In this document: in pieces, positions 3,624-10,752 of the stretch | Layout: the number at the start of each line of letters is the position of its first letter | Numbering within the stretch: the first letter of the stretch is position 1 | Source of the DNA: Rhodothermales bacterium | Lineage (GTDB): Bacteria > Bacteroidota > Rhodothermia > Rhodothermales > Bin80 | Reading direction: 5' to 3' | Assembly: GCA_951812585.1 (NCBI GenBank) | Contig: OX638318.1 | Span: forward strand, 2,478,380-2,542,379 | DNA: 64,000 bases | Translations under genes and position numbers: made by a program | The notes under the pieces: generated by a model | The model's database searches: none | The model's input: the letters and a program-made list of their open reading frames with translations, nothing else | What the model was told of the DNA's origin: nothing

Positions 3624-5333
3624 TTATGGGCGCGCGGAGTAAGGGTTACGCCGGTGTCCCATTGGAAAATCGTCGGTTACGCAGCCTTCGCTGGCAGACG
3701 ACACCGTATGCGCATAGCGCAGCAGTGCCCCGTGCGCAGCCTTCAGCGCAGGCGCTGTCCAGCGCTGACGCCGATTCGCAAGCACTTCGCTGCTCAAGTC
3801 GACATTGATCGTGTTCGCGTTGGCGTCAATAGTGACCACATCGCCATCCTGCACCAGCGCAATAGTACCGCCGACCTGAGCTTCCGGGGTGATGTGTCCA
3901 ACTACAAACCCGTGTGAACCTCCCGAAAACCGCCCGTCAGTGATAAGCGCTACCTTTTTGCCGAGGCCTGCGCCCATGATAGCGCCCGTAGGGCGTAGCA
4001 TCTCCGGCATGCCCGGGCCGCCCCGCGGGCCACAGTAACGCAGCACCAATACGTCTCCTGCCGCAATGCGTCCACCCAGAATGGCATCCATTGCCGCTTC
4101 CTCGGTGTCAAATACGCGAGCAGTGCCTGTAAAGCGTTCCCCTTCCTTGCCGGTGATCTTCGCCACCGCGCCCCCGGGGGCCAGGTTTCCATAGAGAATC
4201 TGCAGGTGCCCCGTTGCTTTAATAGGGGCTTCGAGAGCGCATACCACATCCTGTTGCTCCTGAAGCGGCGCGGCATCATTAAGGTTTTGCTTAATAGTCT
4301 GGCCTGTTACGGTGAGACAGTCGCCATGCAAAAGACCAGCGTCCAGCAGCATCTTCATTACGCCCGGCACGCCGCCCACATTGAACAGATCTTCCATGAC
4401 GTAGCGACCGCTCGGTTTGAGGTCCGCCAAGAGCGGAGTGGCTGCGCTCATAGCCTGGAAGTCATCTAGACCCAGTGGTACTGCTGCAGCCTTGGCCATT
4501 GCCAAAAGGTGCAGCACTGCATTGGTGGAGCCGCCCAGGACGATAATGACGCGCAGCGCGTTCTCGAAGGCGGCTTTATTCATGATGTCGCGCGGCTTGA
4601 TGTCCTGCTCCAGCAGATGATAGATCGTGGGGCCTATCTGTTGCATCTCGCGTTGTTTGTAGATGCTGACCGCAGGGTAGGACGAATCGTACGGTAGCGC
4701 CATGCCTAGAGCTTCAATAGCGGAAGCCATCGTGTTGGCTGTATACATGCCGCCGCAGGCGCCAGCACCCGGGCAGGCGCTCCGTGCAATGTCGTTGAAA
4801 TCCTCTTCGCTGATGGTGCCTGCCGCGCGCTGGCCTGCCGCCTCGAAAGCCGACACGATGTCGATATTCTTGCCCTTCCAGCACCCCGGCTTAATGGTGC
4901 CGCCGTAGACCATCAGACCGGGGCGATTCAGGCGTGCCAAGGCCATGATGGATCCGGGCATGTTCTTGTCGCATCCGGCAACGGCCACCACGCCGTCATA
5001 CCACTGCGCCGAGGCCACCGTTTCTATGGACTCCGCGATGATGTCGCGCGATGGCAGTGAGAACCGCATCCCGGAAGAGCCCATGGACATCCCGTCACTC
5101 ACGCCGATGGTGTGAAACACCAGGCCTACCAGGCCATGGGACTGCACGCTGGCTTTGATGCTCCGCGCCAGGTCATTGAGATGCATGTTGCACGGATTAC
5201 CTTCCCAGCCCATACTCGCAATGCCTACCTGCGGCTTGGCAAGGTCGCCATCGGTCAAGCCGATGGCGTGCAGCATGGCCCGGGCGCCGCCCTGATTGCG
5301 GTTCTGAGTGACGTGCCTGCTGTATCGGTTCAT
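3624..5333 (-). CDS. ilvD: Dihydroxy-acid dehydratase (IlvD/Edd family)
   Basis: 569 residues. IlvD dehydrates 2,3-dihydroxy-isovalerate or -methylvalerate in branched-chain amino acid synthesis using an Fe-S cluster. Cluster cysteines are visible: C48 (GNPCNMH), C121 (GCDKNMPG) and C193 in CPGAGACGG, the form found in plant and Bacteroidota-type enzymes. The start codon at 5333 directly abuts the TAG stop of the upstream GntP-type permease, so the two are translationally coupled. No other ilv/leu gene is present. The neighbours are sugar-acid genes, so a sugar-acid dehydratase role is an alternative, although the motifs look like a standard IlvD. Confidence 0.9.
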
Positions 5334-6692
5334 CTAGACCAAGGGGACAAAGAGTGCCATCAGCAGCGTGACAACGCCGCCCACTACGCCCATGATAGCC
5401 AGGAGCGGGGTCCACGACCGGAGCGTTTCCGATTCGGTGATGCCGCCCATTTTAGAGTAGATCCAGAAGCCGCTGTCGTTCATCCAAGATCCGACGAGTG
5501 CGCCGCTGCCGATGGCAGTGCCGAGGTAAACAACATGGAATCCCAGCGATTCGGGTGCCACCATCGTGGCGGCCATCGCGCTGGCAGTGATCATGGCCAC
5601 TGTCGACGAGCCCTGTGCGAACTTGAGCAGTGCGGCAATGCCAAAACCCAGTGCCAGCATGAGCAGGCCGGAAGCTTGCGCACCGGCGGGTAGCAGCGCC
5701 TGGATCGCAGGTCCGATCTGTGCCTCCTTGAGCATGGCACCGAAGGTACCGCCCGCGGATGTGATCAGGATGATGATGCCGCCGCTCAGCAAGGACTGCT
5801 CAATGAGTTTGCTCATGGTGTGCTTCGAAGGTCGGCGTACCTGGAAGTAGAGCGCGACGCTGACAAAAGCGGCCAGGAGGAGGGCCAGGTTGGGGTCGCC
5901 TAGTACGCTGAACCACTCGGCCATATTTTGCAGCACGGGGCTGTTGCTGTCGGCCAAAGGCGTCAGAATCGTCTTTCCCGAGATGAGCGTCACCGGCAGA
6001 ATGATTGGTGCGAGCGAAAGCGCAAGCGGCGGCGGCCTGTCTGCCGCATCTTGCTTTTCTTCGCCAGGCACAGTGCGCATCGGCACCGGCATGCGGCGGT
6101 CCATGTACCCTGCAAACAGAAACCCTGCGATGGCGGCGGGCAACGCGATCACTGCACCGACTAGCATCATTGTGCCGAGGTCGATGCCCAGATTGTCGGC
6201 GATGATCAGCGGTCCGGGGGTAGGGGGCACAAGGCTGTGGGTAGCCGCGGCCCCCGCGCTGATCGCCATCACAAAGCCAAGGTATCCGCCGCCCGTATGC
6301 CGGTACATCGACCGTGCCAAGGGGATCAGCAAATAGAAGACGGTATCAAAGAAAACGGGCACGGACAGTACGAAGCCGCTCGCGGTGAGCGCAGTCCCCC
6401 CACGCTCTTGCCCGAGGAGCTGAAGAAAGGCCTGCACAACGCGGTCTGCAGCGCCGCTGGCCATCATGGTGGCACCGATCACAGCCGCCATGGCGATGAC
6501 GATGCCAATGCTGCCTGCCGTAGCACCGAAGGCAGTGGCGACACGCGCGACCTTCAACGGCCAGGGACCGGGGGCTAGCAGGCTGACAATGATGGCTGCC
6601 GTGATCAGCGCAACAAAGGCGTTGATGCGGAGCCCGACGATCATCCCGACAACGATCAGGATGGCAAGCACAAGAATGAGTAGGGGCACCAT
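5334..6692 (-). CDS. GntP-family gluconate/sugar-acid:H+ symporter
   Basis: 452 residues of nearly continuous hydrophobic segments (about 11-13 helices), beginning VPLLILVLAILIVVGMIVG with the following LRINAFVALI that is typical of GntP, IdnT and YgbN permeases. VPPTPGP in the middle and SGLLMLALGFG and KFAQGSSTVAM near the C-terminus are family blocks. It leads a minus-strand unit permease-ilvD-dehydrogenase and is divergent from an SDR gene. It probably imports a gluconate-like acid across the inner membrane. Confidence 0.9.
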   Translation of the reverse strand: MVPLLILVLAILIVVGMIVGLRINAFVALITAAIIVSLLAPGPWPLKVARVATAFGATAGSIGIVIAMAAVIGATMMASGAADRVVQAFLQLLGQERGGTALTASGFVLSVPVFFDTVFYLLIPLARSMYRHTGGGYLGFVMAISAGAAATHSLVPPTPGPLIIADNLGIDLGTMMLVGAVIALPAAIAGFLFAGYMDRRMPVPMRTVPGEEKQDAADRPPPLALSLAPIILPVTLISGKTILTPLADSNSPVLQNMAEWFSVLGDPNLALLLAAFVSVALYFQVRRPSKHTMSKLIEQSLLSGGIIILITSAGGTFGAMLKEAQIGPAIQALLPAGAQASGLLMLALGFGIAALLKFAQGSSTVAMITASAMAATMVAPESLGFHVVYLGTAIGSGALVGSWMNDSGFWIYSKMGGITESETLRSWTPLLAIMGVVGGVVTLLMALFVPLV

Positions 6693-7042
6693 GGGGTTTG
6701 CTTCCGTCCTGGATGTGCGCCGTTGCAGCGCGCTCGTGTCGGGTCAAATATATGTTAAGCCGGCGCGCCTGCACGCAGCTTTTTTCAGGCCGCGGCGCAT
6801 TCCGACAGAATCCGCACGCAAAGCGGTCGTGCACTGACCATGCAAAAGGCAAGGCAAGCCAATAACTAGGCTGCGGACCTGCCGCCTTGCGGGTAGCTGT
6901 GTCCACTCGTCAAAGGAACCGCCGCGATGGCCGGTTCTCGCGACGGCCGAATGCGGCCTATCGGCGACTTATCATTAGCTTCTCTTAAGCACAGTAATCA
7001 CAGAGGCACAGCACTGCACGCTGCACCAAGAGTATTGCCATC
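6693..7042. promoter_or_regulatory. Divergent intergenic region between the permease operon and the SDR gene
   Basis: 350 nt without a convincing gene, separating the 5' ends of the GntP-type gene (minus) and the SDR gene (plus). It must hold promoters for both. It is locally AT-richer around 6745-6760 and 6965-6990. No local regulator gene is present and I could not pick a convincing operator palindrome. Confidence 0.5.
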
Positions 7043-7864
7043 ATGCCAAACAACGATTTTGACCTGTCCGGGCGCGTAGCGCTGGTCACGGGAGCGAGCC
7101 GCGGGCTTGGCCAGTATATGGCCAGGGCGCTGGCAAAGGCTGGCGCGGACCTTGTCATTACCAGTCGCGATGAACGGGGCCTTACGGCATTTCAATCGGA
7201 GATGGGGGCTATGGGCAGGCAAGCACTGCCAGCGAAACTGGATGTGCGCAGCCTGGGCAGCATCGAAGAAGCGGTCACCAGCGCCTGGGCGCATTACGGA
7301 CGCATAGATATCCTGGTCAACAATGCGGGTTGCAACAACCGCAAGCCAGCATTGGAAGTGACTTGGGAAATCTGGAACACCATCCTGGACACGAATCTGC
7401 GCGGCACCTTCTTCGTGGCGCAGGCAGTAGCGCGACACATGCTCGACCAGGGCTACGGACGCATTATTAATATTGGTTCGCTAACCTCTGTGGCCGGGTA
7501 CGCCGGCCTGGGCCCCTACTGCGCCAGCAAGGGCGGCGTAAAGCAGCTCACCATGTCTCTGGCCGACGAGTGGGGCCGCCACGGCATCACAGTCAATTGC
7601 ATAGCGCCAGGCTGGTTCAAGACATCGCTGAACGCCGCGCTGTACGACGATTCCAGCTGGGTTAAGGCGGTGACTCAGAGGATTCCTGTAGGACGTCCAG
7701 GCTGGCCGAATGACCTGGATGGCGCCGTAGTCTTCCTGGCGTCCGAAGCCAGCCGCTACATCACAGGGCAGACCATCCTGGTGGACGGGGGATTCTCCAC
7801 GCAGGCCATGCGGGCGCTGCCTGCAGCCCAATTGCGGCAGGAGCGTGGGGACGATTCGGATTAA
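7043..7864 (+). CDS. SDR-family oxidoreductase, gluconate 5-dehydrogenase-like
   Basis: 273-residue classical short-chain dehydrogenase. Cofactor loop TGASRGLG (16-23), NNAG (93-96) and catalytic S146, Y159 and K163 in SxnYCASK. The C-terminal stretch GWFKTSLNAALYDD and the later ITGQTILVDGGF match the gluconate 5-dehydrogenase/IdnO branch. It is divergent from the GntP-type permease, which fits an NAD(P)-dependent keto-sugar-acid reductase. The exact substrate is inferred from context. Confidence 0.85.
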   Translation: MPNNDFDLSGRVALVTGASRGLGQYMARALAKAGADLVITSRDERGLTAFQSEMGAMGRQALPAKLDVRSLGSIEEAVTSAWAHYGRIDILVNNAGCNNRKPALEVTWEIWNTILDTNLRGTFFVAQAVARHMLDQGYGRIINIGSLTSVAGYAGLGPYCASKGGVKQLTMSLADEWGRHGITVNCIAPGWFKTSLNAALYDDSSWVKAVTQRIPVGRPGWPNDLDGAVVFLASEASRYITGQTILVDGGFSTQAMRALPAAQLRQERGDDSD

Positions 7865-8115: not shown

Positions 8116-8199
8116 GCCCTGGTGGCGGAACTGGTAGACGCGCAGCATTCAGGATGCTGTGCCCGTACGGGCGTGGAGGTTCGAGTCCTCTCCAGGGCA
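8116..8199 (+). tRNA. tRNA-Leu (CAG)
   Basis: 84 nt with a long class II variable arm (GCCCGTACGGGC). The acceptor GCCCTGG pairs with CCAGGGC (8192-8198), the anticodon loop is TTCAGGA (anticodon CAG) and the T arm is GGTTCGAGTCC. The discriminator is A and CCA is not encoded. Confidence 0.95.
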
Positions 8200-8311
8200 C
8201 TCGCAAGGGTGCGTTTCCCGCAGTGGCTTGGTGCGGCTCTGCTCGTGGGCATCAGCACAGGTCGCACGCATGTCGCTGTCGCGGCTCTATGCGGGAGAAA
8301 TCTGCATTCCA

Positions 8312-8587
8312 ATGCTGCTAGGCAGAGTAAGAGGGACCGTTTGGGCTACGCGCAAGGACGAGCAGCTCCGAGGCATGAAGCTACAGATCGTGCAGCGCGT
8401 GGGATTGGATGGCACATTGCAGAAGGGCTTTGTGGTAGCGGTGGACAGCGTGGGCGCGGGCATAGGTGAAACCGTGCTCGTGGCGCAGGGCTCGAGCGCC
8501 CGGCAAACCGCGCTCACCAGGAACAAGCCGGTCGATGCGGTCATATCTGCTATTGTGGATAAGCTGGACGTTCCAGCTCAAGAATGA
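8312..8587 (+). CDS. EutN/CcmL-family bacterial microcompartment vertex (BMC-P) protein, copy 1
   Basis: 91 residues. It begins MLLGRVRGTVWAT and carries the signature AVDSVGAGIGE (43-53) followed by GSSAR (60-64) and an IVDKLDV tail, the standard BMC-P fold whose pentamers cap icosahedral microcompartment vertices. I chose ATG 8312 because homology begins there; the frame stays open further upstream into the tRNA-Leu region. A weak GGGAGA lies about 13 nt before it. Its stop overlaps the start of copy 2 (ATGA). No BMC-H, BMC-T or cargo enzyme gene is visible anywhere in the window. Confidence 0.88.
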   Translation: MLLGRVRGTVWATRKDEQLRGMKLQIVQRVGLDGTLQKGFVVAVDSVGAGIGETVLVAQGSSARQTALTRNKPVDAVISAIVDKLDVPAQE

Positions 8588-8871
8588 AGCTGGGGCGCGT
8601 GATTGGTAGCATCTGGTCTACCTGCAAGAATCCGCGTCTGGTAGGGCGACGGATGCTCATAGTGACGCCGATATCCTCTACGGGTCAGCCGACCGGAGCC
8701 GAAGTAATAGCTCTGGACACCATGGACGCGGGCTCTGGGGATGTCGTCATGTATGCGACCGCAAGCGAAGCGGCCTTGCCATTCAAGCCGGGCCTCACGC
8801 CGACGGATGCCACGATCGTCGGGATTGTCGAACGGGTTGATCGTAGTGAGAGCACATGGCATACGGCGTAG
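8584..8871 (+). CDS. EutN/CcmL-family microcompartment vertex (BMC-P) protein, copy 2 (divergent)
   Basis: 95 residues, translationally coupled to copy 1 by a 4-nt overlap. The N-terminus MKLGRVIGSIWST and the alternating strand pattern follow the EutN/CcmL fold, but the hallmark loop is altered: ALDTMDAGSGD replaces the AVDxVGAGxGE form, and the GSSAR site reads TASEAAL. This suggests a specialised vertex paralogue, perhaps forming mixed pentamers. lepA begins about 75 nt downstream. Confidence 0.78.
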   Translation: MKLGRVIGSIWSTCKNPRLVGRRMLIVTPISSTGQPTGAEVIALDTMDAGSGDVVMYATASEAALPFKPGLTPTDATIVGIVERVDRSESTWHTA

Positions 8872-8946
8872 GCCGCATGCCGTGGACGGAACACGATGGA
8901 AGGACGCGCATATTACGCGCGATCCTGCGGCGCCGCAACCGAATCC

Positions 8947-10752
8947 ATGTCTTTGCATCAAAGCCGCATTCGCAATTTCTGCATCATTGCCCATATTGAT
9001 CACGGGAAGAGCACCCTGGCGGATCGACTGCTGGAGCTTACGGAAACCGTTGCGCAGCGGGACATGCAAGATCAGGTCCTGGATTCCATGGATCTGGAGC
9101 GTGAGCGGGGGATTACGATAAAGAGCCACGCCATCCAGATGCAGTATCCGGCATCGGATGGTATCTCGTACACGCTCAACCTTATCGATACGCCTGGCCA
9201 TGTAGACTTCAGCTACGAAGTGTCCCGGGCGCTGAAGGCCTGTGAAGGGGCCATCCTGGTTATTGATGCCGCACAGGGTATTGAGGCCCAAACGATCAGT
9301 AATCTGCTTCTTGCACTTGACCACGATCTGGAGATCATTCCAGTGCTCAACAAGGTGGATCTGCCGAGCGCGCGGCCTGACCTGGTGGCCATGTCTGTGG
9401 AAAACCTCATAGGAGAGCCCGCTGAAGATGTGCTCACGATCAGCGCAAAGACGGGCGAAGGCGTGCAAGACCTGGTGGAAGCTGTCATAGCACGCGTACC
9501 ACCGCCAAAGGGGAAGGTCAGCGCACCCTTGCGCGCGCTGATCTTCGATTCGATATTCAATCAGTATCGCGGAGCCGTTGCGTATGTGCGCGTGTTTGAA
9601 GGCGCGCTCAAGAGGCGGGACGACATCTACTTCATGGCGGCTGACCGCACCTATGCCGCTGAGGAGATCGGGGTCTTGCGCCTGGGTATGGAGCCTGCGG
9701 AGGAGCTGGTAGCGGGCGACGTAGGGTATGTGATCGGATCCATCAAGGATGTGCGGGATACGCGCGTCGGCGATACGATCACGCACGCGCGCAGGCGGGC
9801 GGCAGCGCCGATAGCCGGGTTTCGGGAGGTCAAGCCCATGGTGTTCTCGGGCGTGTACCCTGCCAATGCCGAGGACTTCGAGGATCTGCGGGCGTCACTG
9901 GCACGGTTGCAGCTTAACGACTCGGCCATTGTGTACGAGCCGGAAACGTCGGTGGCTTTAGGATTCGGGTTTCGCGTAGGCTTTCTGGGGCTGCTTCATA
10001 TGGAGATTGTGCAGGAGCGATTGGATCGGGAGTTCGGGCTGGACATCATCACAACCTTGCCGAACGTGAAGTACGAGATCGTGCTGACAAGTGGCACGGT
10101 GCAGATCATTGAGAACCCCAATAAGGTGCCCGCCGGCAATGTGCTGGATCATATTCGCGAGCCCTATGTGAAGGCCGAGATCATCACGCCGACAGACTAC
10201 ATCGGCAACCTCATGAAACTGTGCCAGGAGCGCCGCGGCGAGTATATGAACCAGACGTATCTGGATCAGGAGCGGGTGAGTTTGGAGTACCAGCTGCCGC
10301 TTGCCGAGATTGTCTTTGACTTCTACGACAGGCTCAAGAGCTTCAGCCGGGGCTATGCCTCGCTCGACTATGAACTGTCAGGATACCGCCGGAGCGATCT
10401 AATCAAGCTGGACATTCTGATCAACGGAGATCCGGTCGACGCGCTCTCGGCTATTGTACACCGCACAAAGGCATTTGAGATGGGACGCAAGCTGACCTCG
10501 CGACTGAAGGAGCTGATTCCGCGGCAGATGTTCGAAGTGGCCATCCAAGCGGCCATCGGCAGCCGTGTCATTGCGCGCACCACGGTGCGGGCTGTACGCA
10601 AGGATGTAACTGCCAAGTGTTATGGCGGGGACATCACCCGCAAGCGCAAGCTGCTGGAAAAGCAAAAGGAAGGCAAGAAGCGCATGAAGCATGTGGGCAG
10701 CGTGGAAGTGCCGCAGGAAGCCTTTCTTGCCGTGCTATCCATGGAGCGATAG
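8947..10752 (+). CDS. lepA: Elongation factor 4 (LepA), ribosome back-translocase GTPase
   Basis: 601 residues from ATG 8947, the usual length. The frame is also open from ATG 8896 (17 extra residues), but the conserved [16 protein letters not shown] block starts 8 residues after 8947. G1 is HIDHGKST (16-23), switch I carries RGITI, G3 is DTPGH (81-85) and G4 is NKVD. EF-G-like domains III and V and the LepA-specific C-terminal domain ([21 protein letters not shown]) follow. A conserved unknown protein and lepB lie downstream. Confidence 0.96.

What the first reader, a model, noticed from the sequence alone, without database searches (positions are those of the whole stretch)
8312..8871. Orphan pair of BMC vertex proteins without shell hexamers or cargo
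Two coupled EutN/CcmL genes lie between tRNA genes and lepA. The first is canonical; the second has a changed hallmark loop (DAGSGD instead of GAGxGE). No BMC-H, BMC-T, aldehyde dehydrogenase or other cargo gene occurs in 64 kb. Pentamers alone cannot build a shell, so they either serve a distant locus as a satellite or have another role.
Basis: partly seen in the sequence, partly recalled or inferred. Interest (0 to 1): 0.68.

Follow-up and report, generated by a model that had tools for sequence, protein, structure and literature searches.

The report
Scattered-gene bacterial organelle, probably for deoxyribose
Two "corner-piece" genes that seemed to have no organelle to belong to are in fact part of a complete protein organelle whose genes are scattered one or two at a time over the chromosome, and two enzymes carrying matching packaging tags suggest that the organelle breaks down the sugar of DNA.

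Summary
Window 8312-8587 and 8584-8871 are two intact, coupled EutN/CcmL (BMC-P) genes between tRNA-Leu and lepA, with no other shell gene in the 64 kb. They are not orphans. The same 3.2 Mb chromosome has two BMC-H genes (C1:573-1310), a third BMC-P (C1:344914), an acetylating acetaldehyde dehydrogenase with a conserved two-helix C-terminal tail (C1:388701) and a deoxyribose-phosphate aldolase, DeoC, with a conserved two-helix N-terminal extension (C1:1138071).

Across 114 genomes of the order, BMC-P, BMC-H and this dehydrogenase occur together or not at all (49/52 and 48/52 against 0/62). The DeoC extension is present in 22/22 shell-bearing genomes read and intact in none of 12 shell-less ones. 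In the window's family, shell-less relatives keep decaying relics of the BMC-P pair (same tRNA-Leu/lepA site), the third BMC-P and the DeoC extension. In other families the pair follows phosphopentomutase (deoB).

Best reading: a dispersed ("FRAG"-type) metabolosome that cleaves deoxyribose-5-phosphate and turns the acetaldehyde into acetyl-CoA. FRAG and SPU microcompartments are known; I found no description of this function for a fragmented one, nor of microcompartments in Rhodothermales. The function is inferred.

The parts
8312..8587 (+). BMC-P (EutN/CcmL) gene 1: vertex pentamer paralogue 1, GAGIGE loop
   Evidence: PF03319 102.8 bits; closest solved chain is the Haliangium ochraceum BMC-P 5v74; orthologues in relatives keep SVGAGxGE
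8584..8871 (+). BMC-P (EutN/CcmL) gene 2: vertex pentamer paralogue 2, DAGSGD loop, coupled to gene 1 by a 4-nt overlap
   Evidence: PF03319 86.8 bits; the DAGxGD loop is conserved in orthologues; overlap
8116..8200 (+). tRNA-Leu (CAG), upstream flank; not part of the organelle, but the same flank is seen beside the decayed pair in relative G002
   Evidence: ARAGORN; L031
8896..10752 (+). lepA (elongation factor 4), downstream housekeeping flank; not part of the organelle. The start may be the internal ATG at 8947
   Evidence: Pfam LepA_C and GTP_EFTU

Best explanation
The pair encodes two of the three vertex pentamers of a bacterial microcompartment whose genes are dispersed over at least five places of one chromosome: two BMC-H, three BMC-P, no BMC-T. 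Its probable cargo is DeoC, recruited by an N-terminal two-helix tag, and an acetylating acetaldehyde dehydrogenase, recruited by a C-terminal two-helix tag. Proposed working: phosphopentomutase DeoB makes deoxyribose-5-phosphate; [quoted passage not shown] the shell holds the acetaldehyde back while the dehydrogenase makes acetyl-CoA. Shown here: the genes, their families, their co-occurrence, the conserved tails and the joint decay. Inferred: assembly into one shell, encapsulation, substrate and flux. Unknown: how CoA and NAD are recycled (no PduL).
For: Genome-wide: three PF03319 and two PF00936 genes at three places. Order-wide co-occurrence over 114 genomes: BMC-P with BMC-H 49/52 against 0/62; BMC-P with this dehydrogenase 48/52 against 0/62. 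Dehydrogenase best matches TIGR02518 and has a tail with two conserved blocks between variable linkers in all orthologues, modelled as two short helices at low confidence. DeoC is TIGR00126, 262 bits, matched only from residue 61; the N-terminal extension is in 22/22 shell-bearing genomes and intact in 0/12 shell-less ones, modelled as two helices. Relics of the extension, of the pair and of the third BMC-P in shell-less members of the same family. deoB upstream of the pair on the same strand in relatives, overlapping it by 4 nt in G019.
Against: No experiment. The dehydrogenase is below the TIGR02518 equivalog cut-off (544.8 against 620.1 bits). PduL is absent, so CoA recycling is unexplained. 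Single tag helices are not more amphipathic than shuffles. In the window's own genome the pair is not beside deoB. G037 (96% complete) and two less complete genomes (G020, G095) have shell genes but no dehydrogenase hit. RpiB, Pta and alcohol dehydrogenase were not searched.
Confidence: 0.75

Rival explanations
1. The scattered genes do build one shell, but its substrate is not deoxyribose-5-phosphate. The dehydrogenase handles an aldehyde from another source and the DeoC extension has some other purpose (e.g. oligomerisation).
For: The dehydrogenase substrate is only inferred from its family. DeoC is present in shell-less genomes too, so it is not specific to the organelle by presence. No signature enzyme is encoded beside the dehydrogenase; its neighbours are housekeeping genes.
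Against: The DeoC extension tracks the shell and decays when the shell is lost, which a general role would not predict. DeoC yields exactly the aldehyde expected for this dehydrogenase family, and deoB abuts the pair in relatives.
Confidence: 0.15
2. The pair is a satellite of a conventional main BMC locus that lies elsewhere in the genome.
For: Satellite loci with pentamers are common (PMC8217296, PMC4207490).
Against: The one-contig genome holds no place with both BMC-H and BMC-P, nor is one seen at the three loci read in 20 relatives.
Confidence: 0.03
3. Free pentamers have taken on a role of their own, independent of a shell.
For: The catalogue notes that more BMC-P paralogues exist than vertices seem to need (PMC8217296).
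Against: BMC-P and BMC-H occur together in 49 genomes; the only BMC-P without BMC-H are pseudogenes (G002) or in drafts of 72% and 89% completeness (G059, G111).
Confidence: 0.03
4. In the window's own genome the organelle is a decaying relic, as in its nearest relatives, and no longer works.
For: Shell-less members of the same genus and family (G001, G002, G005) carry relics. The own dehydrogenase tail has lost the otherwise usual tryptophan (SRMEEIEARL for WMDEIEARL).
Against: All seven components here are intact open frames with normal family scores.
Confidence: 0.05

Closest known systems
FRAG bacterial microcompartments (Sutter et al. 2021, PMC8217296)
   Same: Shell genes in several separate genomic places, three BMC-P genes, most shell genes far from enzyme genes, an aldehyde dehydrogenase elsewhere.
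   Different: FRAG types were listed without signature enzyme or function; here a tagged DeoC and a tagged acetaldehyde dehydrogenase are identified. Membership in a numbered FRAG type could not be tested, because it rests on shell-clade HMMs not available here.
SPU (sugar phosphate utilising) metabolosomes (PMC4207490, PMC8217296)
   Same: DeoC-type aldolase feeding acetaldehyde to an aldehyde dehydrogenase; proposed role in DNA-sugar catabolism.
   Different: SPU is one gene cluster with DeoC, RpiB and usually PduL; here nothing is clustered, PduL is absent and RpiB was not tested.
HO microcompartment of Haliangium ochraceum (PMC8217296)
   Same: Three BMC-P; some HO genomes have a PF01791 aldolase with an N-terminal tag-like extension at another place; its BMC-P (5v74) is the closest solved relative of both window proteins.
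   Different: HO has a main locus and BMC-T shell proteins; here there is neither.
Satellite loci of beta-carboxysomes and other BMCs
   Same: Shell genes placed far from other shell genes.
   Different: A satellite presupposes a main locus holding both BMC-H and BMC-P; none exists in this genome.

Membership tests
BMC-P (EutN/CcmL, PF03319) | Profile match over the whole domain | tested here: met
   102.8 and 86.8 bits over the full domain, cut-off 25; third copy 69.1 bits
BMC-P (EutN/CcmL, PF03319) | Forms pentamers at shell vertices | not testable with these tools
   No multimer modelling or experiment available
Bacterial microcompartment (complete shell) | BMC-H and BMC-P in one genome | tested here: met
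   Two BMC-H, three BMC-P
FRAG BMC (Sutter 2021) | Shell genes at several separate genomic places | tested here: met
   Three shell loci at C1 about 1 kb, 345 kb and 2487 kb; the same split in 20 relatives
FRAG BMC (Sutter 2021) | BMC-P triplet drawn from the gray and orange clades plus a third clade | tested here: inconclusive
   Exactly three BMC-P, mutually about 34-40% identical; clade assignment not possible without the catalogue's HMMs
FRAG BMC (Sutter 2021) | Most shell genes remote from enzyme genes of the organelle | tested here: met
   In the own genome none of the shell loci adjoins the dehydrogenase or deoC; no shell gene in the flanks of 41 dehydrogenase loci
SPU metabolosome | DeoC-type PF01791 aldolase as part of the system | tested here: met
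   TIGR00126, 262 bits, with an extension that tracks the shell; encapsulation itself not shown
SPU metabolosome | RpiB-type isomerase (PF02502) | not tested
SPU metabolosome | Genes in one locus | tested here: not met
   Components at five places
Metabolosome core | CoA-acylating aldehyde dehydrogenase with encapsulation peptide | tested here: inconclusive
   Best family TIGR02518, 544.8 bits but below its 620.1 cut-off; two conserved tail blocks; targeting not tested
Metabolosome core | PduL phosphotransacylase (PF06130) | tested here: not met
   No match in the genome

The most novel reading that the evidence does not exclude
Fragmented (FRAG) microcompartments, listed in 2021 without signature enzyme or function, are at least in Rhodothermales deoxyribose metabolosomes. 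Cargo is addressed only by protein tags (N-terminal on DeoC, C-terminal on acetaldehyde dehydrogenase), with no clustering of organelle genes in this genome, and the organelle is kept and lost as a unit although coded at five or more unlinked places beside housekeeping genes.
Probability: 0.6. Interest if true: 0.7.

Novelty: new variant of a known kind. Interest (0 to 1): 0.58.

Why it matters
Microcompartments are usually found, and given a function, by reading one operon. This case shows a complete set of organelle genes that escapes that method and was recovered by co-occurrence, conserved tags and relics of joint loss. It offers a testable function for a class listed as functionally unknown, and names cargo and tag sequences for a small shell (two BMC-H, three BMC-P, no BMC-T). 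It also bears on why microcompartment genes cluster at all: here they have stayed together through evolution without being neighbours.

Tried and rejected
(1) The AAA ATPase directly before the third BMC-P in 20 of 22 loci looked like an organelle component; it is in 57 of 59 genomes, shell-bearing or not, so it is a conserved neighbour, not a part. (2) The class I fructose-bisphosphate aldolase next to it looked like cargo; it too is in shell-less genomes. (3) DAGSGD as degeneration of the second gene: rejected, conserved in orthologues. (4) A main BMC locus just outside the window: none. (5) PduL: absent. (6) The other four aldehyde dehydrogenases of the genome look like ordinary oxidative ones (judged by eye from the translations). 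(7) Amphipathicity of single tag helices against shuffles was not significant, so the tag argument rests on conservation and co-loss. (9) Literature searches for a microcompartment in Rhodothermales or a FRAG function found nothing relevant.

Full report
What was checked. The window holds two EutN/CcmL genes at 8312-8587 and 8584-8871 on the + strand, overlapping by 4 nt. Both exceed the PF03319 cut-off by a wide margin (102.8 and 86.8 bits against 25). They stand between tRNA-Leu (8116-8200) and lepA (8896-10752). The window is G000:C1:2478380-2542379 of a single 3,198,349-base contig. The contig is probably circular, because a CdaR/YbbR-like gene runs off one end and its other part is found at the other end (L006, L007; inference). 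No further PF03319 or PF00936 domain lies in the window.

The rest of the shell. The genome has exactly two PF00936 genes, at C1:1026-1310 (94 aa) and C1:573-1025 (150 aa), both single-domain BMC-H, adjacent and on the - strand. It has one further PF03319 gene at C1:344914 (93 aa). The shell set is therefore two BMC-H and three BMC-P in three places, with no BMC-T. Both pentamers of the window have the Haliangium ochraceum BMC-P (5v74) as closest solved relative. BMC-H 1 is close to EutM/PduA-type hexamers.

The same dispersed set in relatives. Relatives found by name through the dehydrogenase are Rhodothermales, Rhodothermia or unplaced Bacteroidetes metagenome assemblies, so the order is taken to be Rhodothermales. 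Neighbourhoods of all three shell loci in relatives show the same three-way split. The BMC-H pair is accompanied by a CdaR/YbbR-like gene in 19 of 20 loci. The third BMC-P is preceded by an AAA ATPase in 20 of 22. The BMC-P pair lies near pcm-cdaA-folP and near deoB in most other families. The lepA site belongs to the window's own family: G002 has the remains of both BMC-P genes between a tRNA-Leu-like sequence and lepA (L031).

Co-occurrence. In 114 genomes of the order, 52 have PF03319, mostly three copies, and 49 have PF00936, mostly two copies. All 49 are among the 52; the other three are G002 (pseudogenes) and two incomplete drafts. None of the 62 genomes without BMC-P has BMC-H. Genomes are related, so the Fisher value (4e-29) overstates independence; but two families (f1, f7) are mixed, and there too the genes are present or absent together.

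Candidate cargo 1: acetaldehyde dehydrogenase. Of five aldehyde dehydrogenases in the genome, one at C1:388701-390233 best matches acetylating acetaldehyde dehydrogenase TIGR02518 (544.8 bits, below that model's cut-off of 620.1, so the substrate is a family inference; closest structures 5j78 and 3k9d). It is present in 48 of 52 BMC-P genomes and in none of the 62 others; the one extra hit, G034, is a distant protein at 38% identity. Its catalytic part ends near residue 446. The 14 aligned orthologues continue with a variable linker, a conserved block like WMDEIEARLRARAGNP, a second variable linker and a terminal block like LPLPDxxIxxLIRRFKK (further loci). The model shows two short helices, 463-474 and 499-510, in an otherwise disordered tail, at low confidence. 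A short helix on a flexible linker is the usual form of an encapsulation peptide (PMC8217296). No shell gene lies in the flanks held for 41 related loci, up to 6 kb a side and shorter where contigs end. In many genomes the neighbours are efp-, accB-, accC-, gcvH- and guaA-like genes (names by sequence recognition).

Candidate cargo 2: DeoC. All genomes have PF01791 aldolases, so presence alone says nothing. DeoC proper (TIGR00126, 262 bits, cut-off 117) is matched from residue 61 on. In all 22 shell-bearing genomes read, DeoC carries an N-terminal extension of roughly 50-95 residues before the IDHT motif, with a first block like MxxxEKxxIxxRL and a second like ALxRMVxAGACRFGxRAD (in G055 the first block is not recognisable). 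The model gives two helices, 3-16 and 21-34, at low to moderate confidence. Of 12 shell-less genomes with a readable DeoC of this type, none has an intact extension. Eight begin at or close to the core, G053 has an unrelated leader, and three from the window's own family (G001, G002, G005) have degenerate forms. In G001 a short direct duplication shifts the frame of deoC a little further on, which could also be an assembly error. Five other shell-less genomes gave only a different DeoC-like protein and one gave none.

Relics. Besides the DeoC relics, G002 keeps broken copies of both BMC-P genes at the same site as in the window, and G001, of the same genus, keeps a broken third BMC-P directly behind the AAA ATPase. 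Neither has BMC-H or the dehydrogenase. Joint decay of unlinked genes is the strongest evidence that shell, dehydrogenase and DeoC extension serve one function.

Link to deoxyribose. In relatives, phosphopentomutase deoB (462.7 bits) lies upstream of the pair on the same strand: overlapping it by 4 nt in G019, 27 nt away in G057, 55 nt in G033, and 0.8 to 4.4 kb away in others. [quoted passage not shown] This is the pathway proposed for SPU metabolosomes (PMC4207490; PMC8217296).

Comparison with what is known. In layout this fits the FRAG class of Sutter et al. 2021: shell genes in up to six places, a BMC-P triplet, few enzymes nearby, function unknown. In chemistry it works like SPU. It is not an SPU locus, because SPU is defined by one locus with DeoC and RpiB. 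The same paper notes PF01791 enzymes with N-terminal tag-like extensions away from the HO locus, so a tagged aldolase at a distance has precedent. Searches of the held literature found no microcompartment described in Rhodothermales and no function for FRAG. Subscription papers and supplements were not available, so this is not proof of absence. I rate it a new variant of a known kind.

Limits. Shell assembly, encapsulation and flux are inferred. Cofactor recycling is open: PduL is absent and other candidates were not searched. G037, listed as 96% complete, has shell genes and a tagged DeoC but no dehydrogenase hit; this may be assembly loss or a real exception.

Noticed in passing
L006:573-1025 (-), G000:C1; orthologues in L107-L124: The second BMC-H has a conserved C-terminal module after a variable linker, like MTVRELRALAR..FPIQGREIARANKAELL, with no Pfam match even at E = 10. 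It resembles SAP or Rho-N helix-loop-helix folds by eye; a docking or nucleic-acid-binding role is possible.
   Followed up: partly
L008:7096-8994 (+), G000:C1 about 343.0-344.9 kb: A 632-aa AAA ATPase with a long N-terminal part unknown to Pfam is found in 57 of 59 genomes of the order and usually stands right before the third BMC-P. Its function is unknown.
   Followed up: partly
L087-L106 and L107-L125: In relatives the BMC-P pair is near a cdaA-like gene (diadenylate cyclase) and the BMC-H pair beside a cdaR/YbbR-like gene. Both shell loci thus adjoin c-di-AMP genes; this may be chance. Names by sequence recognition.
   Followed up: no
L031:1340-1960 (relative G002) and L157:3255-3452 (relative G001): Decaying BMC-P pseudogenes at the same sites as the intact genes of this genome, showing recent loss of the organelle within one family.
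   Followed up: yes
window 3624-7864: A sugar-acid gene group next to the tRNAs: dihydroxy-acid dehydratase-like, GntP permease and a gluconate 5-dehydrogenase-like SDR. No link to the shell genes seen.
   Followed up: no
L062-type loci: G062:C33 and G062:C213: One relative (G062) shows four BMC domains in two places, against two elsewhere; a duplicated pair or an assembly mixture.
   Followed up: no
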